The position numbers were made by a program, and so were the translations under genes. This document shows, piece after piece, positions 5,537 to 27,957 of a stretch of 57,858 nt of DNA; the stretch's first letter is position 1; the number at the start of each line of letters is the position of its first letter. The stretch comes from Acidobacteriota bacterium (GTDB taxonomy: Bacteria > Acidobacteriota > Vicinamibacteria > Vicinamibacterales > SCN-69-37). Below the pieces are notes generated by a model that was given only the letters and a program-made list of their open reading frames with translations, was not told the DNA's origin and made no database searches. The stretch lies in assembly GCA_013203475.1 (NCBI GenBank), contig JABMNV010000027.1, forward strand, positions 1 to 57,858. The letters run 5' to 3'.

Positions 5537-7027
5537 ATGCAGCCATACGAAACGCTCATTCTCGTCGCGTACTTCTTTGTCTTGAGCATCCTCGGTATTT
5601 ATGGATGGCATCGGTACTACCTCGTGTACCAGTACATGAAGAACAAAGATCGCGTGCCCGGTCCGCCGCCTCCGATGGCGGAGCTGCCCGTGGTGACCAT
5701 CCAGTTGCCGATTTTCAACGAGATGTATGTCGTCGATCGACTGATTGATGCCGTGTGCGGAATCGACTACCCGAAGGATAAGCTCGAGATTCAGGTGCTG
5801 GACGACTCCACGGACGAGACTCAGGACATTGCACAACTGGCCGTTCGTCGTCAGGCGGCGCGCGGGTTTGATATTGCGTACCTCCATCGTACCAACCGTA
5901 CGGGCTACAAGGCAGGCGCTCTTGAGGCGGCGCTGGAAGTGGCGCGTGGCGAGTTCGTCGCAATCTTCGACGCAGACTTTGTGCCGGCGCCTGAATTTCT
6001 GAGGCAGACGGTCGGGTACTTCCAGGATCCAAAGGTGGCGTTGGTGCAGGCGCGTTGGGGGCACATCAATCGGGGTTACTCCCTGTTGACAAAGATTCAG
6101 GCCATTCTGCTGGATGGGCATTTCGTGCTCGAGCACGGCGGCCGTAACCGCGCCGGATGTTTTTTTAACTTCAATGGCACGGCTGGCATCTGGCGCAAGA
6201 CCGCCATCGCAGACGCCGGAGGCTGGCAGCACGACACGCTGACCGAGGACCTCGACCTGAGCTATCGGGCGCAGTTGCGTGGATGGCAATTCATTTTTCT
6301 GCCTGACGTGGTGGCCCCAGCCGAAGTTCCCGTGGAGATGAACGCGTTCAAGTCGCAGCAGCACCGCTGGGCCAAGGGCAGCATCCAGACCTGCCGCAAG
6401 GTGTTGCCCGCAATTCTGGCGTCGGACCTGCCACGCAAAGTGAAGGTGGAAGCGTTTTTCCATCTGACCGCCAACTTCAATTACCTGCTGATGTGTGTGC
6501 TGTCGGTGCTGATTTTTCCGGCGATGGTCGTGCGGTACAACATGGGGTGGACAGAGGCCTTGCTCATCGACGTGCCGCTGTTCATGGCAGCCACTGCATC
6601 GGTCTTGAACTTCTATCTGGTGTCGCAGCGTGAGTTGTATGCCGATTGGAAGACTCGCGTGAAGTACCTGCCGATCGTCATGGCGGTAGGAATCGGCCTG
6701 GCGGTCAACAACACCAAGGCCGTGTTCGAGGCGATGTTTGGCGATCCTGGTGAATTTACCCGGACACCGAAGTACGGCATCTCGACCAGACGAGATGACT
6801 GGCAGCACAAGAAGTACCGCCAGTCCATGCCGATTCAACCGTTCATCGAACTGGCGCTGGGCATCTACTTTACGGTGACGGTGATTTACGCGATGGCCAA
6901 TGGGATCTTCGGCACGTTGCCGTTTCTGATGCTCTTCCAGTTTGGATTCATGTACACCGGCGTGGTGTCGCTTCTACAACAACTGGGTGAGGATGTACGG
7001 TTGAAGGCTCCGCAGATCGCGAAGTAG
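5537..7027 (+). CDS. membrane family-2 glycosyltransferase, cellulose-synthase-like
   Basis: This is a processive-type GT-A glycosyltransferase of the inner membrane, 496 residues. A membrane helix opens the protein (about 5-25). The catalytic domain carries Asp89/Asp90 (VLDDSTDE), the DxD-type motif at 145-147 (IFDADFVP), the TED motif with the candidate catalytic base at 237-239 (LTEDLDLSYR) and Q274xxRW278 (QQHRWAKG). Several membrane helices follow, from about 305 onwards. The architecture is that of CesA/CsuA2-like and glucomannan-synthase-like enzymes, so a beta-linked polysaccharide or glycolipid product is likely, but the sugar cannot be read from sequence. No PilZ domain or bcs partner genes are adjacent. 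Citrate synthase follows 36 nt downstream without obvious functional linkage. Confidence 0.9.
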   Translation: MQPYETLILVAYFFVLSILGIYGWHRYYLVYQYMKNKDRVPGPPPPMAELPVVTIQLPIFNEMYVVDRLIDAVCGIDYPKDKLEIQVLDDSTDETQDIAQLAVRRQAARGFDIAYLHRTNRTGYKAGALEAALEVARGEFVAIFDADFVPAPEFLRQTVGYFQDPKVALVQARWGHINRGYSLLTKIQAILLDGHFVLEHGGRNRAGCFFNFNGTAGIWRKTAIADAGGWQHDTLTEDLDLSYRAQLRGWQFIFLPDVVAPAEVPVEMNAFKSQQHRWAKGSIQTCRKVLPAILASDLPRKVKVEAFFHLTANFNYLLMCVLSVLIFPAMVVRYNMGWTEALLIDVPLFMAATASVLNFYLVSQRELYADWKTRVKYLPIVMAVGIGLAVNNTKAVFEAMFGDPGEFTRTPKYGISTRRDDWQHKKYRQSMPIQPFIELALGIYFTVTVIYAMANGIFGTLPFLMLFQFGFMYTGVVSLLQQLGEDVRLKAPQIAK

Positions 7028-7063
7028 GTGGCCGATTGAAGGTCAAATGAAGGTCAGCAAGGC

Positions 7064-8218
7064 ATGAGTAGTGTGACTGAAACAAAGGCCAAGGCTGGGC
7101 TGCAAGACGTCGTCGCCGGCGAGTCGGCCATTTGCTATATCGACGGCGAGCGCGGTGTGTTGTCGTACTGCGGTTACGACATCCACGACCTGGCAGACAT
7201 GGACCGGGGCGTCTCGTTTGAGGAAGTCTGCTTCCTGCTCTGGCATCGTCGCCTGCCAACTCGGGCGGAACTGGGCGATTTGCAGACGCAGCTGGCCGCG
7301 GCTCGCGTGCTTCCTGAGCCGATACTCCGCGCAATGAAGTCGTTGCCGGCGGGCGACGGGATGGACGCGCTTCGGACGTTGACGTCGATGCTCGGCCACT
7401 ACGACTCGGATGCCGGGCTGAGTACCCCTCAGGCCAACTATCGCAAGGCGGTGCGATTAACCGGACAATTGTCTTCTCTGGTCGCGACTTGGGGCCGAAT
7501 GGCGGCCGGCGGCGGGGCGATTACGCCTGACCCCGCGCTGGGCCATGCCGCCAATTTTCTGTACCTGTTGACGGGCACACGACCGGCGCCGTTGGCGACG
7601 CGTGCGTTCGACGTGTCTCTCGTGCTGCATGCAGACCATGAACTGAACGCTTCGACGTTTGCCGCCCGTGTGGCGGCGGCGACCTTGACCGACCTCCACT
7701 CGACGATCGTTGGCGCGATCGGTGCGCTGAAGGGGCCGCTGCATGGTGGTGCGAATGCCGAGGTCATGAAGATGCTTCTGAACATCGGTCAGGATGCGGG
7801 CATCGAACGCGCCGAGGAACATGTGCGCGCGAAACTTGGCCGCAAGGAAAAGATCTCCGGCTTTGGACATCGTGTGTACCGAACCGAGGATCCGCGTGCG
7901 ACCCACCTGCGTCGCTTTTCGCAGTCAATTGGAGAGCGGGCGGGGCAACCCCAGTGGTTCGCCATGTCGGAGCGAATCGAACAGGTCGTCAAGGCCGAGA
8001 AGAACCTGAATCCGAACGTCGATTTTTATTCGGCCTCGATGTTCTATTCGTTGGGGATTGCCATTGACCTGTACACCCCGATGTTCGCGGTCAGCCGCAT
8101 CGCCGGATGGACGGCCCACGTGCTGGAGCAGTTCGAGAACAACCGCCTGATTCGCCCACGGACTGACTACATCGGCCCCGCCTACCCGCAGTCTGTTCTG
8201 CCGATCGATCAGAGATAG
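7064..8218 (+). CDS. gltA: citrate synthase (or 2-methylcitrate synthase)
   Basis: This enzyme condenses acetyl-CoA with oxaloacetate to citrate at the entry to the TCA cycle. The 384 residues fit the short bacterial/archaeal type II-like citrate synthases. Conserved parts include an [10 protein letters not shown] segment with the first active-site histidine, [15 protein letters not shown], a second histidine in [16 protein letters not shown], and an aspartate in NPNVDFYSA. The start is the ATG at 7064; AAGG sequences lie just upstream. No prp genes are nearby, so citrate rather than 2-methylcitrate synthesis is the simpler reading, although the two enzymes are close in sequence. lepA starts 7 nt after the stop. 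Confidence 0.93.
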
Positions 8219-20810: not shown

Positions 20811-21299
20811 TTAACGGGCCTGTGCTGGAACGATCTGAATGATCGTCCTGTAACGCACGCTGGTGGTGCCCAACACGTGTAGGTAGCCCTCCGCCCCATC
20901 CCAGGTGTAGTCCTTCACAACGACGCTAGGGGGATAGGCCATCGTTTCTTCGCGGAAGCGACCCAACTCGAATTGGTGCATCATCGGCCCCTGGAATATC
21001 ACCCGACCGCCGTTGTTCAGTGTGGTCTTGTAGTAGGTGACGATGTCTTCGTACGGGGTGTCGGTGCCATACAGGTAGTACTGCTGCCCTTTGCCGGCGT
21101 CGATCGTCTCAAGAAACGTCGCGGCCGGATAGGCCGGAAGTTCCCGGGCGTCGTCTGGAACGGTTTGAGGTGAGGGCGTGACGGGCCTTGCGCCGGCCGT
21201 CGGGAAGGGCTTGGGAATTGGCGGCACGGTCTGGGCCTGTGCCGATGCGGCCGTACACACGAGCGAGACGGTCAGCCAGAGAGCGCCAGATCGAATCAT
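20811..21299 (-). CDS. secreted protein of unknown function
   Basis: I do not recognise this protein. It has 162 residues: a signal peptide (about 1-22, ending ASAQA), a short Pro/Thr-rich stretch, then a compact alpha/beta domain (about 50-160). That domain contains KGQQYYLYGTDTPYEDIVTYY, split here as KGQQYYLYGTD and TPYEDIVTYY, plus DYTWDGAEGYLHV and the end YRTIIQIVPAQAR. The start ATG at 21299 is chosen because AGGAGGTGA lies 6 nt upstream and the signal peptide begins there; a longer in-frame reading has no such support. It lies 86 nt after the UbiA gene, so it could be the last gene of that run or have its own promoter (TATACT just upstream of the ribosome-binding site). Confidence 0.8.
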   Translation of the reverse strand: MIRSGALWLTVSLVCTAASAQAQTVPPIPKPFPTAGARPVTPSPQTVPDDARELPAYPAATFLETIDAGKGQQYYLYGTDTPYEDIVTYYKTTLNNGGRVIFQGPMMHQFELGRFREETMAYPPSVVVKDYTWDGAEGYLHVLGTTSVRYRTIIQIVPAQAR

Positions 21300-21385
21300 C
21301 GAAGTCACCTCCTGAGTATAAGACGCTGAACGGCCTCGATGGTCGGTGCCATTTCTCTTCGCCGTGGGCCCAATCCGCGGCCACT

Positions 21386-22294
21386 TCACAGAACATAGGC
21401 CAACGCGAAGCCAATTTGCAGGACGAACATCATGCGATACATGTGCGCCCACGAGACGTGGTTCTCGTCAATCGCCAGATCCTCCGGGCGACGTAACATC
21501 AGATAACACACGTAGATGCCGTAGAGCGCCATGCCGATGCCGAGCGCGTGGAGCAGGAGGCGTCGCCCGGTCAGGATGCCCAGCCACGTGCCCACGTTAA
21601 TCATGAGGAACGGCACGACAAACGACGGTGAGATCATCCAGGCGGCCTTGGTGACGCCATGGACAATTGGCAGCGTGCGGCACCCGCCACGCGCATCCCC
21701 CTCCATGTCGGCGAAGTCCTTAGTCGTAGACGCGCCCAGTAGAAACAGCCCGAAGACTCCTCCGATAAACCAGGGCTCTACCCCTACCACCGTCTTGACG
21801 GCCGACCATCCGGCCACCTTGAGGAGAACCCCCCGGGGAATGGCGATCGTGATGTTGGCCCACATGCCACGCTGCTTGGTGCGCAACGGCGGCGCCGAGT
21901 AGACGATTGTGGCCACGACTGCCACAGCCACGATCCAGAAACACTCATGGCGTCCGTCGGGCGCCACCAGCCACGCCAAGACCAGGGTGAGTGCATACGC
22001 CCATCCGGTGAACGACCAGGCGTGACGGATCGTCAGTCGGCCGGACGGGAGTGGCCGCCCAGGTTTGTTGACACGATCGATTTCAAGGTCGTAGATCTGA
22101 TTCAACGCGTTGCTGCCAGCGTTGAACATCGCCGCCATCGCGGCGCCGATGAGGGCCGGCACAAACAGTCCGGGACTCCACGGCGAGTGGGGTGCCGCGC
22201 CGATGGCGGTGACGGCCCCAGAGAAAAACCCAAGGGCTGGAGCCACCAGAGTGAACGGGCGTGAGAGTTCCGAATAGAGGCGCCAGTGGGACAT
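21386..22294 (-). CDS. UbiA-family prenyltransferase
   Basis: This is an inner-membrane enzyme of 302 residues that would transfer a prenyl group from a prenyl diphosphate to an acceptor. The first Asp-rich motif is N65xxxD69xxxD73 in NQIYDLEIDRVNKPGRPLP, and the second is TTKDFADMEGDARGG (about 190-203). About eight to nine hydrophobic helices are visible. The NKPGRPLPSG block resembles chlorophyll synthase and geranylgeranylglyceryl-phosphate geranylgeranyltransferases more than UbiA or MenA, so a C20 donor is plausible. No quinone or chlorophyll genes are adjacent. Six nt upstream lies a fused isoprenoid-alcohol kinase, which suggests that the kinase supplies the donor. The acceptor is unknown. 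Confidence 0.87.
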   Translation of the reverse strand: MSHWRLYSELSRPFTLVAPALGFFSGAVTAIGAAPHSPWSPGLFVPALIGAAMAAMFNAGSNALNQIYDLEIDRVNKPGRPLPSGRLTIRHAWSFTGWAYALTLVLAWLVAPDGRHECFWIVAVAVVATIVYSAPPLRTKQRGMWANITIAIPRGVLLKVAGWSAVKTVVGVEPWFIGGVFGLFLLGASTTKDFADMEGDARGGCRTLPIVHGVTKAAWMISPSFVVPFLMINVGTWLGILTGRRLLLHALGIGMALYGIYVCYLMLRRPEDLAIDENHVSWAHMYRMMFVLQIGFALAYVL

Positions 22295-22300
22295 GTCTGT

Positions 22301-23626
22301 TTACAGAAGCGACCACGCCGTCAAGGTGAGGCCCGCGCCCATCGCTGAATTCACGAAATTGACGACGTCGTTGGTCAGCATACCTCGGGCTTCCAGCGTT
22401 GCGCCGATCACGCCTTCCAGCAGCGACGCCACCGTCGCGGCCAACCCGATAAGCGGGATGGATGCAATCGGCACGAGGCCGACCGCTGCGCCCAGGCTGG
22501 CCAACCCCACGCTGGCCACTGCGCCCGCCCCTGTCCCTTCCAGCGACACGGCGCCAGTCGTGCCAGGGGGCACCTGTCGTCTGGTGGTGATTTGCCAAGC
22601 GGTGCGGCCCCAGGCCTTGCCCACCTCGCTGGCGACGGTGTCGCCACCTGCCGTCGCCAGGGCTGCGACGAGGGCAAGATGCGCCAGGGTCGGGTCTGTG
22701 AGGCCTGCGGCGACCAGGGCAGCCCAGGCCGCAAGTCCTGTGTTGGCGATGGCATTGCCCGGCCCACGTCGGCCCCCGCGATCTTCCGCGATACCTGCCG
22801 CGGCTTTTCGCGCGTGTCCGAGTCGTGTGGTACCAGACGCGATCAGGAATGTCGCGATCAGCATCAACCACCCAGGGGCGCCGCCGCCCACAATCATGGC
22901 GCCACCGATCGCCGCGCCCGTCACGGATCCCATACCGGTGACCAGCCCCGCTCGCCACCCCAGTAGCGCTGCCGCAGCGTTGACCGCCATCAGGCTCCAG
23001 ACCAGCGTATTTGTCGGTGCCAATTGTGCAGTGAGGTGAGTCAGCAGGACTGCAGCCTGAGTATCGCCCGTGCTCCACAAGATGAGTGTTGTCACAGCCG
23101 GCACGGTGATGTTGTCATCGAGGGCGATTGGCACCGTCTCGGCAAAGGCCGCGACGGTCGCCGCCAGAATGCCCACGGACAGTAACCAGGCGCTGACCGG
23201 TGCGGGTGAGCTCCACCATAGGGTCCCGGCGGCGGCGGCACTGCCAAATATCAGAAACGACACCAGACCCGCCACGGATTTATTGGCGTTCCACGAAAGT
23301 GCTGGGCTCTTGACATGGATGCCGACCAGCGTCGCCATGCCATCGCCGACCGCGAGAATGGCCCAAGCCATCGCCGCCAACGGAAGGTCGTGTCGAAAGA
23401 CCAGGATCAGTGCGAGCACGGCGACGGGATACAGGATGACGCCCGTGTTCCAGGAGCGAGTCCGGTCCGCGGCACGCAGCACCTGGGGGAGGATGCGTGG
23501 AAGGACGAAGGCGTTAAAGGCGATCGCGATGATGGCCAGCAGTACGGCCTGTGGCCACGTGAGCCAGCGCAGCGTGAGCGCGCCGCTGCCGACGGCGATG
23601 TGCAGGAGTTGGCGACGTGTTTCCAT
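22301..23626 (-). CDS. fused isoprenoid-alcohol kinase: VTE5/dolichol-kinase-like domain plus DUF92 (VTE6-like) domain
   Basis: This is a 441-residue polytopic membrane protein with two domains. Residues about 1-190 resemble the phytol/dolichol kinase family: METRRQLLHIAVG start, GDGMATLVG (about 94-102) and the NKSVAGLVSF motif (about 115). Residues about 205-441 match DUF92: GWRAGLVTGMGSVTGAAIGG, TRLGHARKAAAG, GGDTVASEVGKAWG (about 328-341), QVPPGTTGAVSLEGTGAG and TNDVVNFVNS. In plants VTE5 phosphorylates phytol and the DUF92 protein VTE6 phosphorylates phytyl phosphate; here both would sit in one chain and make a prenyl diphosphate. The ATG at 23626 begins the conserved segment and lies 11 nt after the reductase gene. 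The alcohol used is not readable from sequence. Confidence 0.85.
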   Translation of the reverse strand: METRRQLLHIAVGSGALTLRWLTWPQAVLLAIIAIAFNAFVLPRILPQVLRAADRTRSWNTGVILYPVAVLALILVFRHDLPLAAMAWAILAVGDGMATLVGIHVKSPALSWNANKSVAGLVSFLIFGSAAAAGTLWWSSPAPVSAWLLSVGILAATVAAFAETVPIALDDNITVPAVTTLILWSTGDTQAAVLLTHLTAQLAPTNTLVWSLMAVNAAAALLGWRAGLVTGMGSVTGAAIGGAMIVGGGAPGWLMLIATFLIASGTTRLGHARKAAAGIAEDRGGRRGPGNAIANTGLAAWAALVAAGLTDPTLAHLALVAALATAGGDTVASEVGKAWGRTAWQITTRRQVPPGTTGAVSLEGTGAGAVASVGLASLGAAVGLVPIASIPLIGLAATVASLLEGVIGATLEARGMLTNDVVNFVNSAMGAGLTLTAWSLL

Positions 23627-23637
23627 CGGCCTGAACG

Positions 23638-24630
23638 TCAGCGCACGTCGCGTCCAGCCGCGACCTCTTCCCGCCACCAGTCGAGTGTGTCCCCCAGGGT
23701 GTCTGCGATGGCTCGCTGAGGGAGCCATCCCACTTCCGCCCGAAGGCGCGACGCGTCACCCACCAACCTCGGAAGGTCGCTCGGCCGCAGGCGTGCAGGA
23801 TCCACAGCCCGAGTTACCGGAGCGCGTGCCAACGCGATCAGCTGATCGAGCAGGTCGCCGATGCGTACGGCGAGTCCCGTGCAGATGTTGTACGCACGGC
23901 CCGATTGTCCAGTGTCGAGTAGCTGAGCGTAGGCCCGGACCGTGTCGCGCACGTCGGTGAGGTCACGTTCGGCGTCGAGGTTGCCGACGCGCACCTCCGC
24001 GGGTGTCAGCCCGTGTTCGATGCGTGCGATCTGCCGGGCGAAACTTGACAGCGCAAAACTCGGGTCCTGACCAGGCCCAACATGGTTAAACGGGCGGGCG
24101 ATCACCACATCCAGATGGTCGGTCTCAGCGGCCAGCAATGCGAGTTGATCCTGGGCCAGTTTGGCGAGACCGTAGGGGTTGGTCGGCACCAGTGGCGCGT
24201 CTTCCGTGAGCGGGGTGTCCGAGGCGTGGTAGATCATCGCCGATGTTACGACCAGAACACGGCACGACGGACAATGTTGACGCACGGCTTCGAGGATGTG
24301 ATGGGTGCCCATGACGTTTGTGCGCAAGGGGGCCATCGAATTTTTCCAGGACTGTCCAACGTGAGGAGAACCGGCCAGGTGCGCGATGCGCGTCGGCCGC
24401 GCCTCAGCGATCGCCCGATCGACCGCCTCCTTGTCGGTGACGTCGACCACCCGCCACGCAACCCCTGCCTCGTTGGGCTGTGGCCTTCGGCTCCAGGCCA
24501 GGAGCGGTCCGGCTGCGGCGTCGGCTTGCAGGTGGGCAAGCAGGTGTCGCCCAGCGAAGCCCGCCGCGCCCGTGATCAGGGTCGTCTCAGACGTTGGCTC
24601 GGCTGCCGTATTGGGTGTGATAGTAGGCAC
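23638..24630 (-). CDS. NAD(P)-dependent sugar epimerase/reductase, GDP-6-deoxy-mannose reductase (Rmd)-like
   Basis: This is an extended short-chain dehydrogenase of about 330 residues. The nucleotide-binding loop is TGAAGFAGRHLL, and the active site has an upstream Ser in VVTSAMIYH and YGLAK (YxxxK) in NPYGLAKLAQDQL. The block ARPFNHVGPGQDPSFALSSF is typical of Rmd and related GDP-deoxyhexose enzymes, so it may reduce a GDP-4-keto-6-deoxy sugar. The substrate is uncertain because neighbour rmlB makes a dTDP sugar. The start is taken as the GTG at 24630, overlapping rmlB by 44 nt, because the reading frame further upstream shows no family similarity. The exact start is unsure. Confidence 0.85.
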   Translation of the reverse strand: MPTITPNTAAEPTSETTLITGAAGFAGRHLLAHLQADAAAGPLLAWSRRPQPNEAGVAWRVVDVTDKEAVDRAIAEARPTRIAHLAGSPHVGQSWKNSMAPLRTNVMGTHHILEAVRQHCPSCRVLVVTSAMIYHASDTPLTEDAPLVPTNPYGLAKLAQDQLALLAAETDHLDVVIARPFNHVGPGQDPSFALSSFARQIARIEHGLTPAEVRVGNLDAERDLTDVRDTVRAYAQLLDTGQSGRAYNICTGLAVRIGDLLDQLIALARAPVTRAVDPARLRPSDLPRLVGDASRLRAEVGWLPQRAIADTLGDTLDWWREEVAAGRDVR

Positions 24631-25615
24631 GGTAGGCTTGATCTTGTTCTTTGATCGGGCGCCACCATGATTCGTTTTGGCAGTACCAATCGACCGTGGA
24701 CGCCAGCCCTTCTTCAAATGGCACGTGCGGGGCCCATCCAAGTCCCCGGAGTTTGGTTGTGTCCAACGCATACCGTCGATCGTGGCCGAGGCGGTCAGCC
24801 ACGCGCGTGATCAGGGCGTCGGAGCGTCCAGCCAACTCAAGAATGCGGTGTGTCAGGTCGACGTTCGTGACTTCGTTGCCGCCGCCAACGTTGTAGACCT
24901 CGCCATCGGTCCCCTGGGCCATCACCACGTCAATGGCCCGGCAGTGATCGTCGACGTGGAGCCAGTCTCGGACATTGAGTCCGTCTCCGTAGAGGGGGAC
25001 CGGGATGTTGTCGACGGCGTTGGTGATGAAGAGGGGAATGACTTTCTCTGGAAACTGGTTCGGCCCGTAGTTATTCGAGGCGCGTGTAATGACCACCGGG
25101 ATGCCGTAGGTGGCCCAGTAGCTGTACGCCAATCGGTCCGCACCCGCCTTGCTGGCTGAATACGGATTGCGCGGCCGGAGTTCGTCGGTCTCCACGCTGG
25201 CACCCGAAGGCACGCTGCCGTAGACCTCGTCCGTTGAAATCTGGACGAAGCGTTTCAGGTGCGTGGCCTGTCGTGCCGCTTCCAAGAGCACAAACGTCCC
25301 GATGACGTCTGTCGTGATGAAGGCGGCCGCAGACTGGATCGACCTGTCCACGTGGGTTTCAGCCGCGAAGTGCACGACCATGTCAGAGTCGTGCACGAGC
25401 GGGCCCGCGATTGCGGCGTCCGCGATATCGCCTTGAACAAAATGGTGCCGCGCGCTGTCCATGACGGACGACAGATTCTCGAGCCGTCCCGCATAGGTCA
25501 GCTTGTCGAGGGTCGTGATCTGCCAATCGGGGTGCGCGTTGTGAGCCCATCGCACGAAGTTAGAGCCGATAAAGCCGGCACCGCCGGTCACCAATACCTT
25601 TGTCATTTCACTCAT
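24587..25615 (-). CDS. rmlB: dTDP-glucose 4,6-dehydratase
   Basis: RmlB converts dTDP-glucose to dTDP-4-keto-6-deoxyglucose, the branch point to rhamnose and other deoxysugars of surface polysaccharides. The 342 residues are standard. Motifs are VTGGAGFIGSNFVRW (NAD loop), HFAAETHVDRSI, the active-site QISTDEVYGS with Thr-Asp-Glu, and YSASKAGAD (YxxxK). The start overlaps the lptD stop by 4 nt (ATGA). RmlA, RmlC and RmlD are not in the window. Adjacency to lptD suggests use in LPS O-antigen or core synthesis. Confidence 0.96.
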   Translation of the reverse strand: MSEMTKVLVTGGAGFIGSNFVRWAHNAHPDWQITTLDKLTYAGRLENLSSVMDSARHHFVQGDIADAAIAGPLVHDSDMVVHFAAETHVDRSIQSAAAFITTDVIGTFVLLEAARQATHLKRFVQISTDEVYGSVPSGASVETDELRPRNPYSASKAGADRLAYSYWATYGIPVVITRASNNYGPNQFPEKVIPLFITNAVDNIPVPLYGDGLNVRDWLHVDDHCRAIDVVMAQGTDGEVYNVGGGNEVTNVDLTHRILELAGRSDALITRVADRLGHDRRYALDTTKLRGLGWAPHVPFEEGLASTVDWYCQNESWWRPIKEQDQAYRAYYHTQYGSRANV

Positions 25616-27957
25616 CGCCGATTGTCATTATCCCCGAAAACGCCCAGGAGGTTTGTGAAGGACCCGATGCCGGCGAGCGTCAGCGACATACTGAATCGCC
25701 GGTCATTGGGTAGGCCCAGGTGACCCAGGTTCGTGACTGCGTAGTCGATGGCTATTCCACAACACTGGGCGTTATAGAAGCCAGTCAACCGCTGCTGCAG
25801 GAGCCGTTCGCGCAGGACGTCGTAGTAAATGCTGTACGCGAGCGAGGCGCCGCCCTCGCGCTTCTTGAGACGTGTGGAACCACCGATAAAATGGTCCGCA
25901 CTCAAAGGATTGTCATAGCCGACCAGTCCCGGGATCAGTTGTCGTTTTGACCAGTTCACCGAAAAATCCAGCGTTGGGCGAGTCACATTGGCTGACGCTC
26001 GATAACTGCGGACTGCTCCGAACTGGGTGTCGTATTCAATGCCGACCTGTCCAGCTAGTGCCGGGGAGGGGGTGACGCTGATGGTGCCGCGCACAGGGGA
26101 AAAGTTGCCCGGGGGCGTCGCGTAGTAATACAGGCCGCCGTAGCTCGACTGGTACTGGAGGTCATATGACGCAGCTCGTGCGTCCGTGTAATACGTCTGG
26201 TTGACCTCCACATTCAGAATCTCCCGGACCATCGCTGGTGCATCACCCTGACGAACCTTGGCCAAGAGGCTGTTTGAGATCCCATACGTCACCTGCGTGA
26301 CGCCTCCGACAATCGTGTCCACGCCATCGAATTGGACGACTTCGTCAAACCGCTCAAACGCTGATTTTTTTTGAATCGTCACCGAAGGTTCGATCACATG
26401 CTTGAACCGCTCAGCGAATCCACTCCCAGGAGTGTCGAACACTCGAGTAAAGACGGGGCCTCGGATTCGGAAACGCCCCTCAATCAGATTGCGAGTCAGG
26501 GGGGCTTTGAGAAAGGCACCGCTGACGGGGTCGCGCGATTGATCCCAACCCGTCCGCCGTATCGACAGGCTGCCGTTGAGCGTCAGTGCTGACCCCAATG
26601 CGAGTGGTGCCCGCACCGTCACTGAGCCGTCAGTCCTGAGCACGCCTGTTCGCGTCTCAGGACGGTCGACGTCGACATAGCGGACCATGTTCTGGATGTC
26701 GTAAGAGCCACCAATGGAGATACTGGTACGCGCGATTGGCGCCTCCGATACACTCACGCTGATGCGAGGCTGGTATCGATAACTGGAGGCGGTTGTGCCA
26801 TAAAAGACGTCGGTCCGTTCAGCCTGCGCACTGGCACGTAGTCGTCCCCAACTCCCGCTGGCATTCGCTGCGAAATATCGTGATCGTCTGGCGAAGGCTG
26901 CCAGGTCGACCTGATACAGCTGCTGGGCCGTCGCATCAGTGAAATAGTCGGCGCGAGCCTGGAATCGAATCCCTCCTGGGAGCGCCTGCGCGATATTGCC
27001 TTTTACTTCGAATGATTGCCTCGCCAGTGACGTGACGGTGCCCTCGGTGTCCCGTTGCGCTCTCTCTCGAATGACGTAGACGCGCGCGTCGCCGCGCGAA
27101 CTCGGCCCTGCGACATACCGATAGTCCGCCCCGAGCCCCTGGCCCCTGGCCGGAAACCAGTCGTGGTAAATGGTCGCGTCTTGACTCCGACCGAGCGCCA
27201 GGAAAAACGCATTGCTCAGAGAAAACCCGCGGTAGCTGGATGTGCCGTAACTAGGCATCAGGAACCCAGTCGCGCGTCCACCTTCCTGAATCGGGTAGTA
27301 AAACACCGGGAGGTAGAGGAGTGGGACGTCTTTGACCTGAAGGACCGCGTTGCGCAGGATGGCGTATTTGTCGACGGTGAAGGTCATGCGTGAGGCCGTC
27401 ATCTCCCACCGGCGGCTTGGCTGAACGCAGGCCGTAAAGATGGCGTTCGTCAGGCGGTAGGTCTGTGGTCCGGTCTTTTCAATACGGGCTGCCGAAAAAA
27501 TCGCCTCTGGTTCCTGGGCCCCAAACAACGTCCGATCAATTTCCCGATTCGTCAGTTGCAGCGTGCCGCTGGCTTGTTCAAAGAACCCGGTCCGAGTCTT
27601 GACATCAAACTCGCCCCTGATGGCCGCGATACGGGTGCCTGTCTGCTGAAAGACCACCTGCCCGCGCGCGATCAGGCGTTCCTCTGGCAAGAGGTAGTCA
27701 ATTTCCTGTGCGATGAGTTGCACCTCGCCACAGCGGATTTCGATCGGCTGCCCGTTTGTGCCGCGCAGTTCAAGCCGACTCGAGCCCGCAGGACCGTCAA
27801 TGTTCGTCCGGAGGGCGCTGTCATATGTCCCCAGTTCGCAGCTGTTCACGACTTGTGCCGCGCCGGTCGTCGGCCATAGAAGCGCACCGGCGAGCACACA
27901 CACGGATGGGAAGAATCGAGAGATGCTGGGTGTTATTCGGTCAGACGTGCTGGTCAC
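25612..27957 (-). CDS. lptD: LPS-assembly outer-membrane protein LptD
   Basis: LptD is the beta-barrel that, plugged by LptE, inserts lipopolysaccharide into the outer leaflet. The 781 residues are typical. A signal peptide (about 1-34) is followed by a periplasmic beta-jellyroll (about 45-200, with LLPEERLIARGQVVFQQ and IRGEFDVKTRTGFFEQA). The LptD barrel comes next, starting near LLYLPVFYYPIQEG and GFLMPSYGTSSYRGFSLSN (about 215-255), with alternating aromatic beta-strands to the end. Two Cys near the end (NAQCCGIAIDYAV) and two near the N-terminal half (NSCEL, EIRCG) could form the inter-domain disulfides known in E. coli. The start is a GTG at 27957, 18 nt after folC. Confidence 0.93.
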   Translation of the reverse strand: MTSTSDRITPSISRFFPSVCVLAGALLWPTTGAAQVVNSCELGTYDSALRTNIDGPAGSSRLELRGTNGQPIEIRCGEVQLIAQEIDYLLPEERLIARGQVVFQQTGTRIAAIRGEFDVKTRTGFFEQASGTLQLTNREIDRTLFGAQEPEAIFSAARIEKTGPQTYRLTNAIFTACVQPSRRWEMTASRMTFTVDKYAILRNAVLQVKDVPLLYLPVFYYPIQEGGRATGFLMPSYGTSSYRGFSLSNAFFLALGRSQDATIYHDWFPARGQGLGADYRYVAGPSSRGDARVYVIRERAQRDTEGTVTSLARQSFEVKGNIAQALPGGIRFQARADYFTDATAQQLYQVDLAAFARRSRYFAANASGSWGRLRASAQAERTDVFYGTTASSYRYQPRISVSVSEAPIARTSISIGGSYDIQNMVRYVDVDRPETRTGVLRTDGSVTVRAPLALGSALTLNGSLSIRRTGWDQSRDPVSGAFLKAPLTRNLIEGRFRIRGPVFTRVFDTPGSGFAERFKHVIEPSVTIQKKSAFERFDEVVQFDGVDTIVGGVTQVTYGISNSLLAKVRQGDAPAMVREILNVEVNQTYYTDARAASYDLQYQSSYGGLYYYATPPGNFSPVRGTISVTPSPALAGQVGIEYDTQFGAVRSYRASANVTRPTLDFSVNWSKRQLIPGLVGYDNPLSADHFIGGSTRLKKREGGASLAYSIYYDVLRERLLQQRLTGFYNAQCCGIAIDYAVTNLGHLGLPNDRRFSMSLTLAGIGSFTNLLGVFGDNDNRR

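What the first reader, a model, noticed from the sequence alone, without database searches (positions are those of the whole stretch)
21386..23626. Isoprenoid-alcohol salvage module: VTE5/VTE6-like kinase fusion next to a UbiA prenyltransferase
Seen: one 441-residue membrane protein joins a phytol/dolichol-kinase-like half (about 1-190) to a DUF92 half (about 205-441), and a UbiA prenyltransferase with NxxxDxxxD follows 6 nt later. Known: plant VTE5 phosphorylates phytol and the DUF92 protein VTE6 phosphorylates phytyl phosphate, giving a prenyl diphosphate. Inferred: a single protein could carry both steps, and the UbiA would move the product to an acceptor. I see no tocopherol, chlorophyll or quinone genes beside it, so substrate and acceptor are open. 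Phytol or geranylgeraniol from decaying phototrophs, or recycling of the cell's own prenol, are options.
Basis: partly seen in the sequence, partly recalled or inferred. Interest (0 to 1): 0.72.

Follow-up and report, generated by a model that had tools for sequence, protein, structure and literature searches.

The report
Fused prenol kinase with dedicated prenyltransferase
Many Acidobacteriota carry a small gene set that appears to rescue isoprenoid alcohols: a dehydrogenase like the plant farnesol dehydrogenase, one membrane protein joining the two kinases that plants use to salvage phytol, and a membrane enzyme that should attach the re-activated chain to a still unknown partner; this points to an isoprenoid lipid not yet described in this phylum.

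Summary
Window 22301-23626 (-) encodes a 441-residue membrane protein and 21386-22294 (-) a 302-residue UbiA enzyme, 6 nt apart. The C-half is DUF92/VTE6-like. The N-half has no single-sequence Pfam hit, but its family profile finds the cyanobacterial VTE5-like kinase and archaeal relatives, and the catalytic residues of both halves are nearly invariant in 55 relatives. In 297 Acidobacteriota genomes the UbiA clade occurs in 84 and DUF92 in 83 of those; 53 pairs are adjacent, always kinase first, and 23 lie on other contigs. A third member was found: an extended SDR directly upstream of the fusion in 34 genomes. Its orthologs are in 15 of 17 fusion+UbiA relatives, including the window's genome on another contig, and in none of 23 others. 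It groups with plant farnesol dehydrogenase (reference recalled, 34 residues verified in print). Best reading: prenal/prenol -> prenyl-P -> prenyl-PP -> UbiA product. The donor is probably C15-C20. The acceptor is unknown: tocopherol and archaeal DGGGP routes lack their partner genes. The kinase fusion itself was reported in Methanosarcina in 2015. The operon is a new variant of a known kind.

The parts
23012..23626 (-). N-half of the fusion (residues 1-205): VTE5/SEC59-like prenol kinase domain; R5, H9, D95, K116, G120, E163, D171-N172 nearly invariant
22301..23011 (-). C-half of the fusion (residues 206-441): DUF92/VTE6-like prenyl-phosphate kinase domain; K274, R287, D329-T330, E334, G355, G358 invariant
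21386..22294 (-). UbiA-family prenyltransferase, 302 aa, 6 nt downstream; separate clade near DGGGP synthase, homogentisate phytyltransferase and chlorophyll synthase
23638..24771 (-). NAD-dependent epimerase/dehydratase directly upstream (NCBIfam best hit dTDP-glucose 4,6-dehydratase, below cut-off); occupies the place that the farnesol-dehydrogenase-like SDR has in other families
24587..25615 (-). RmlB, dTDP-glucose 4,6-dehydratase (over NCBIfam cut-off); conserved neighbourhood, probably not part of the prenol pathway
25612..27957 (-). LptD-like outer-membrane protein; conserved upstream neighbour in most loci

Best explanation
This is a prenol-salvage and prenyl-transfer module. An FLDH-like SDR (on another contig in this genome, directly upstream of the fusion in most other families) interconverts a C15-C20 prenal and its prenol. 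The N-half of the fusion phosphorylates the prenol to prenyl monophosphate, the DUF92 half phosphorylates that to prenyl diphosphate (CTP is the likely donor by analogy with VTE5/VTE6), and the UbiA enzyme transfers the prenyl group to an acceptor that could not be identified, giving a prenyl lipid. Shown here: family membership, catalytic residues, operon structure and near-strict co-occurrence. Inferred: both activities in one protein, chain length, direction of the SDR, and the acceptor class.
For: Both halves keep their motifs in 55 relatives. The N-half profile finds cyanobacterial and archaeal VTE5-like kinases. UbiA clade and DUF92 co-occur in 83 of 84 UbiA genomes among 297 (Fisher p 6e-43; not corrected for shared ancestry); 53 adjacent on the same strand with the kinase first, 23 on different contigs. 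ATGA overlaps in many relatives. SDR orthologs: 15 of 17 module-positive relatives and 0 of 23 others; 45 of 47 SDR-positive genomes in the phylum have the UbiA (p 2e-27), and in 34 the SDR ends where the fusion begins. Arabidopsis FLDH scores 376 bits against the SDR profile (HpnA-like paralogs mostly under 260, other SDRs at most 82) and nests in the SDR clade. Two UbiA genes without the kinase next to them adjoin a short-chain prenyl-PP synthase. Structure: UbiA closest to DGGGP synthase 6m31; the fusion model shows weak similarity to CdsA and CarS. Literature: VTE5 and VTE6 accept geranylgeraniol and geranylgeranyl-P, and FLDH reduces farnesal (PMC13415981); plant and cyanobacterial kinases prefer CTP (PMC9782597).
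Against: No biochemistry exists for any member. The SDR is unlinked in this genus, missing from one 98%-complete fusion genome (G005), and below the ortholog score in 39 of 84 UbiA genomes (four of these have a lower-scoring SDR directly upstream). The FLDH reference was recalled from memory, verified for 34 residues only, and other bacterial FLDH-like SDRs were not sampled. The neighbourhood is rich in dTDP-sugar and LPS genes, which also suits a polyprenyl-carrier role. The conserved lysine of the RKxxH clamp is Q in 32 of 55. Fold matches of the fusion are weak (Z at most 7.2).
Confidence: 0.6

Rival explanations
1. Polyprenyl-carrier recycling: the fusion phosphorylates long-chain polyprenol (undecaprenol type) to renew the lipid carrier for LPS or O-antigen sugars made by the neighbouring dTDP-sugar genes, and the UbiA works on the same long-chain lipid, like the UbiA-family decaprenyl-phosphate phosphoribosyltransferase.
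For: lptD, rmlA/B/C/D and epimerases lie directly upstream in most loci across classes; a glycosyltransferase and a mannose-1-P guanylyltransferase-like gene lie beside one unlinked fusion; dolichol kinase belongs to the same superfamily (PMC5898192); the archaeal DUF92 context is uppS (PMC5898192).
Against: A carrier needs only a monophosphate, yet both kinase halves are conserved. UbiA is closest to C20-donor enzymes and adjoins short-chain prenyl-PP synthases when unlinked. The SDR tested by presence and absence and found to track the module is FLDH-like, not a sugar epimerase.
Confidence: 0.15
2. Archaeal-type ether lipid branch: the UbiA is a DGGGP-synthase-like ether former and the fusion acts as a cytidylyltransferase, as CarS or CdsA do, making CDP-activated isoprenoid ether lipids.
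For: UbiA model closest to DGGGP synthase 6m31; the DUF92 half shows weak structural similarity to CdsA and archaeal CarS; one archaeal contig carries DUF92, UbiA and a VTE5-like gene.
Against: GGGP synthase PF01884, which makes the acceptor, is not over cut-off in the own genome or any of 40 relatives; DGGGPS NCBIfam cut-offs are not met; the halves match kinase families (VTE5, DUF92), not CarS.
Confidence: 0.07
3. Housekeeping repair rather than salvage of outside prenols: the kinases only re-phosphorylate prenols made when the cell's own FPP or GGPP is hydrolysed, keeping the donor pool of the UbiA full.
For: The own genome belongs to a lineage not known to be phototrophic (own knowledge); two UbiA genes sit next to FPP/GGPP-type synthases, so the donor can also be made de novo.
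Against: Does not by itself explain the prenal/prenol SDR as an operon partner. The two readings overlap in chemistry and differ only in the source of the prenol.
Confidence: 0.15

Closest known systems
Plant and cyanobacterial phytol salvage VTE5 + VTE6 feeding homogentisate phytyltransferase (tocopherol)
   Same: Same two kinase families in series followed by a UbiA enzyme; DUF92 half 47-49% identical to a cyanobacterial DUF92; NQIxDxxID motif shared with HPT
   Different: Kinases fused; UbiA is not HPT (86.5 bits against cut-off 226); no HPPD over cut-off in the own genome and no tocopherol cyclase
Archaeal SEC59-like + DUF92 fusion, e.g. Methanosarcina barkeri Mbar_A3310 (PMC5898192)
   Same: Same domain order in one protein
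   Different: That paper names uppS as the only conserved context; here the context is an FLDH-like SDR and a UbiA
Arabidopsis farnesol salvage FLDH + FOLK (PMC13415981)
   Same: Dehydrogenase plus prenol kinase logic; SDR 36-44% identical to FLDH
   Different: In plants the second kinase of the cytosolic route is unidentified and there is no dedicated UbiA; here they are one operon
Archaeal DGGGP synthase (6m31) and (bacterio)chlorophyll synthases
   Same: Closest UbiA relatives with solved structure or by profile
   Different: Separate clade; equivalog cut-offs not met; no GGGP synthase over cut-off

Membership tests
VTE5/SEC59 prenol kinase (COG0170) | RKxxH charged clamp (as in PfPolK, PMC10849223) | tested here: met
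   R5 in 52/55 and H9 in 51/55; the K position is Q in 32, K in 16
VTE5/SEC59 prenol kinase (COG0170) | GDxxA, K[ST]xxG, E...(D)DN motifs | tested here: met
   D95 52/55, K116 51/55, G120 52/55, E163 53/55, D171 53/55, N172 52/55
VTE5/SEC59 prenol kinase (COG0170) | Profile relationship to standalone VTE5-like proteins | tested here: met
   A2 profile: cyanobacterium E 9e-11, archaea E 1e-10 to 4e-6, whole genomes
VTE5/SEC59 prenol kinase (COG0170) | Pfam PF01148 match | tested here: inconclusive
   4 of 15 members match, best E 2e-5; the window protein does not; a cyanobacterial VTE5-like protein does not match either
VTE5/SEC59 prenol kinase (COG0170) | Prenol kinase activity | not testable with these tools
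   needs assay
DUF92 / VTE6 (PF01940) | Pfam cut-off | tested here: met
   139.9 bits against 27.5
DUF92 / VTE6 (PF01940) | NCBIfam TIGR00297 hypothetical-equivalog cut-off | tested here: not met
   137.6 against 205.85 bits
DUF92 / VTE6 (PF01940) | Prenyl-phosphate kinase activity | not testable with these tools
   needs assay
UbiA prenyltransferase superfamily (PF01040) | Pfam cut-off and two Asp-rich motifs | tested here: met
   135 bits against 34.2; NQIYDLEID and KDFADMEGD with invariant Asp
Chlorophyll/bacteriochlorophyll synthase | NCBIfam equivalog/subfamily cut-off | tested here: not met
   111.8 against 313; 97 against 212
Homogentisate phytyltransferase | NCBIfam PRK12887 cut-off | tested here: not met
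   86.5 against 226; control cyanobacterial HPT 413.5
Tocopherol pathway | HPPD and tocopherol cyclase present | tested here: not met
   no HPPD over cut-off in own genome; cyclase 0 of 40
DGGGP synthase | NCBIfam equivalog cut-off and partner GGGP synthase | tested here: not met
   88.3 against 296; PF01884 over cut-off in 0 of 40
Farnesol dehydrogenase FLDH (the SDR partner) | Groups with Arabidopsis FLDH rather than HpnA-like SDRs | tested here: inconclusive
   376 bits and nested in the clade, but the FLDH reference is recalled (34 aa verified in PMC4657912) and bacterial sampling is sparse
HpnA hopanoid-associated epimerase (the SDR partner) | TIGR03466 cut-off | tested here: not met
   148-246 against 367.65 bits

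The most novel reading that the evidence does not exclude
About a quarter of sampled Acidobacteriota genomes make an undescribed C15-C20 prenyl lipid with a dedicated UbiA enzyme, fed by a complete bacterial prenal-to-prenyl-diphosphate salvage operon in which one bifunctional protein performs both phosphorylations.
Probability: 0.4. Interest if true: 0.75.

Novelty: new variant of a known kind. Interest (0 to 1): 0.58.

Why it matters
Genes for prenol salvage are known for few organisms; a 2022 review calls it a missing pathway (PMC9782597), and the second kinase of farnesol and geranylgeraniol salvage is still unidentified in the plant cytosol (PMC13415981). A three-gene bacterial operon with both kinases in one protein gives a compact enzyme to test, and a one-pot source of prenyl diphosphates from cheap alcohols. 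The UbiA clade marks an unassigned prenyl lipid in an abundant soil and freshwater phylum, and its gene presence pattern tells which strains to compare by lipidomics.

Tried and rejected
(1) Chance or artefact ORF: rejected by conservation in the phylum. (2) Tocopherol-type acceptor: HPPD is not over cut-off in the own genome and is over it in only 2 fusion-positive relatives; tocopherol cyclase absent. (3) Archaeal ether-lipid synthesis: no GGGP synthase over cut-off. (4) Geranylgeranyl reductase as a marker gene: matches in 40 of 40, uninformative. (5) Solved structures for the N-half by sequence: only a spurious antibody hit; Foldseek for the fusion: no match E<0.001; VIA-align: CdsA Z 7.2, CarS Z 6.7, within the range of common arrangements. 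(6) The SDR's own locus in genomes where it is unlinked: rhomboid, another epimerase, ferredoxin; no acceptor clue. (7) UbiA-type terpene cyclase, which would need no acceptor: considered; papers found were nearly all fungal; not excluded. (8) UbiA tree: long branches make the exact sister group unsure. (10) The VTE6 paper and the FLDH paper are not held.

Full report
WHAT IS THERE. On the minus strand of the window a 441-aa membrane protein (22301-23626) is followed after 6 nt by a 302-aa UbiA enzyme (21386-22294). Pfam sees DUF92 in residues 216-431 and UbiA in the second protein; it sees nothing in residues 1-205. The window lies in a 3.58-Mb, 264-contig genome; close relatives in named collections are Acidobacteria/Vicinamibacterales MAGs.

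THE N-HALF. An alignment of 15 homologous N-halves (A2) gives PF01148 hits for four members (best E 2e-5). As a profile it finds, in whole genomes, a standalone 234-aa VTE5-like protein of a cyanobacterium (E 9e-11) and of archaea (E 1e-10 to 4e-6). The motifs line up: R(K/Q)xxH, GDG, K(S/T)xxG, E..(D)DN. Over 55 aligned relatives (two of them, standalone DUF92 proteins, lack the N-half) R5, H9, D95, K116, G120, E163, D171 and N172, and in the DUF92 half K274, R287, D329, T330, E334, G355, G358 and G364, are invariant or nearly so. Both halves are therefore kept as enzymes. The AlphaFold model is confident (pLDDT 93). Its best structural neighbours are CdsA and the archaeal CarS, at Z values that may only show a common arrangement.

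PRIOR ART. Makarova et al. 2015 (PMC5898192) described the same SEC59-like + DUF92 fusion in Methanosarcina barkeri and proposed a kinase step in isoprenoid metabolism. The fusion as such is not new.

THE PAIR. In 40 relatives the UbiA (64-85% identical) and the fusion occur together, kinase first. The UbiA is much more conserved than the fusion. ATGA overlaps are common. In 297 genomes of the phylum the UbiA clade is in 84 and DUF92 in 120; 83 have both (Fisher p 6e-43, not corrected for phylogeny); the one exception is a 75%-complete genome. 53 pairs are adjacent on the same strand, all kinase first; 6 are near, 1 is 21 kb away, 23 are on different contigs. Two divergent loci have the order reversed (L080, L082). 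One archaeal contig (L092) carries DUF92, then a UbiA, and a standalone VTE5-like gene.

A THIRD MEMBER. Scanning neighbourhoods across the phylum showed an extended SDR directly upstream of the fusion. Its profile (A6) finds orthologs (over 300 bits) in 15 of 17 module-positive relatives and in none of 23 others (p 3e-9). In the window's genus it is unlinked (own copy G000:C131:358-1290). In the phylum sample 45 of 47 SDR genomes have the UbiA (p 2e-27). In 34 genomes the SDR ends 600-830 nt before the DUF92 profile start, i.e. just where the N-half begins, and four more have a lower-scoring SDR in that place. It is not HpnA: 148-246 bits against a cut-off of 367.65. It resembles Arabidopsis farnesol dehydrogenase FLDH: 36-44% identity over full length, against at most about 31% for the other SDRs of the loci; 376 bits to A6; nested inside the SDR clade in a tree. 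The FLDH sequence was recalled, so this is a lead; a 34-residue piece printed in PMC4657912 is verbatim in it.

DONOR AND ACCEPTOR. The UbiA's nearest profiles and structures are enzymes that use C20 donors: DGGGP synthase, (bacterio)chlorophyll synthase and homogentisate phytyltransferase; no equivalog cut-off is met, and in the tree it forms its own clade. In two genomes where the UbiA is away from the kinase it adjoins an FPP/GGPP-type synthase. A C15-C20 donor follows as an inference. For the acceptor, homogentisate (HPPD, cyclase) and GGGP are unlikely, because their partner genes are missing. The neighbouring lptD and dTDP-sugar genes leave a glycan-related acceptor or a polyprenyl-carrier role open.

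MECHANISM. Most likely: prenal <-> prenol (SDR) -> prenyl-P (N-half) -> prenyl-PP (DUF92 half) -> prenylated lipid (UbiA). Plant VTE5 and VTE6 accept geranylgeraniol and its phosphate (PMC13415981), and the characterised plant and cyanobacterial kinases prefer CTP (PMC9782597), so the chemistry has precedent. Whether the prenol comes from outside (phytol, geranylgeraniol) or from the cell's own diphosphates cannot be told from sequence.

LIMITS. No activity data; co-occurrence statistics ignore shared ancestry; many genomes are MAGs; FLDH reference partly verified; acceptor unknown.

Noticed in passing
L034:10143-10904 (G010), also L089: A lone DUF92 gene remains at the same syntenic site, without the N-half and without the UbiA.
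   Followed up: partly
L092:821-2412 and 6704-7405: An archaeon (MAG from horse feces) carries DUF92 next to a UbiA, with a standalone VTE5-like gene on the same 7.9-kb contig.
   Followed up: partly
G129, G154, G192 (L136, L145, L146): Genomes of 3.7 Mb in two contigs with BchG- and BchK-type UbiAs (Chloracidobacterium-like by inference) have the kinase fusion but not this UbiA clade; the fusion may serve bacteriochlorophyll prenol there.
   Followed up: partly
L121, L127, L131, L132 (and htpX in L052, L020): UbiA genes of this clade often lie beside ClpB, Hsp20, HtpX or GrpE heat-shock genes; meaning unknown.
   Followed up: no
L080:2901-6035, L082:4631-9399: Gene order reversed (UbiA then fusion), followed by a convergent gene that looks like inorganic pyrophosphatase; in L082 a glycerol-3-phosphate-oxidase-type FAD protein ends 4 nt before the UbiA reading frame.
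   Followed up: no
window 20811-21452 (-): Secreted-looking conserved protein without any Pfam match, kept next to the locus in many relatives.
   Followed up: no
L049 (VFZF01000002.1): Record titled Acidimicrobiia carries the Vicinamibacterales-type locus; probably a mislabelled MAG.
   Followed up: no
G241, G286 (L137, L138) and other genomes of family f23: This Acidobacteriota family mostly has a standalone DUF92 of about 250-320 aa; in the two genomes checked the VTE5-like half was not found, and the UbiA clade was not found in this family. Its role there is unknown.
   Followed up: no
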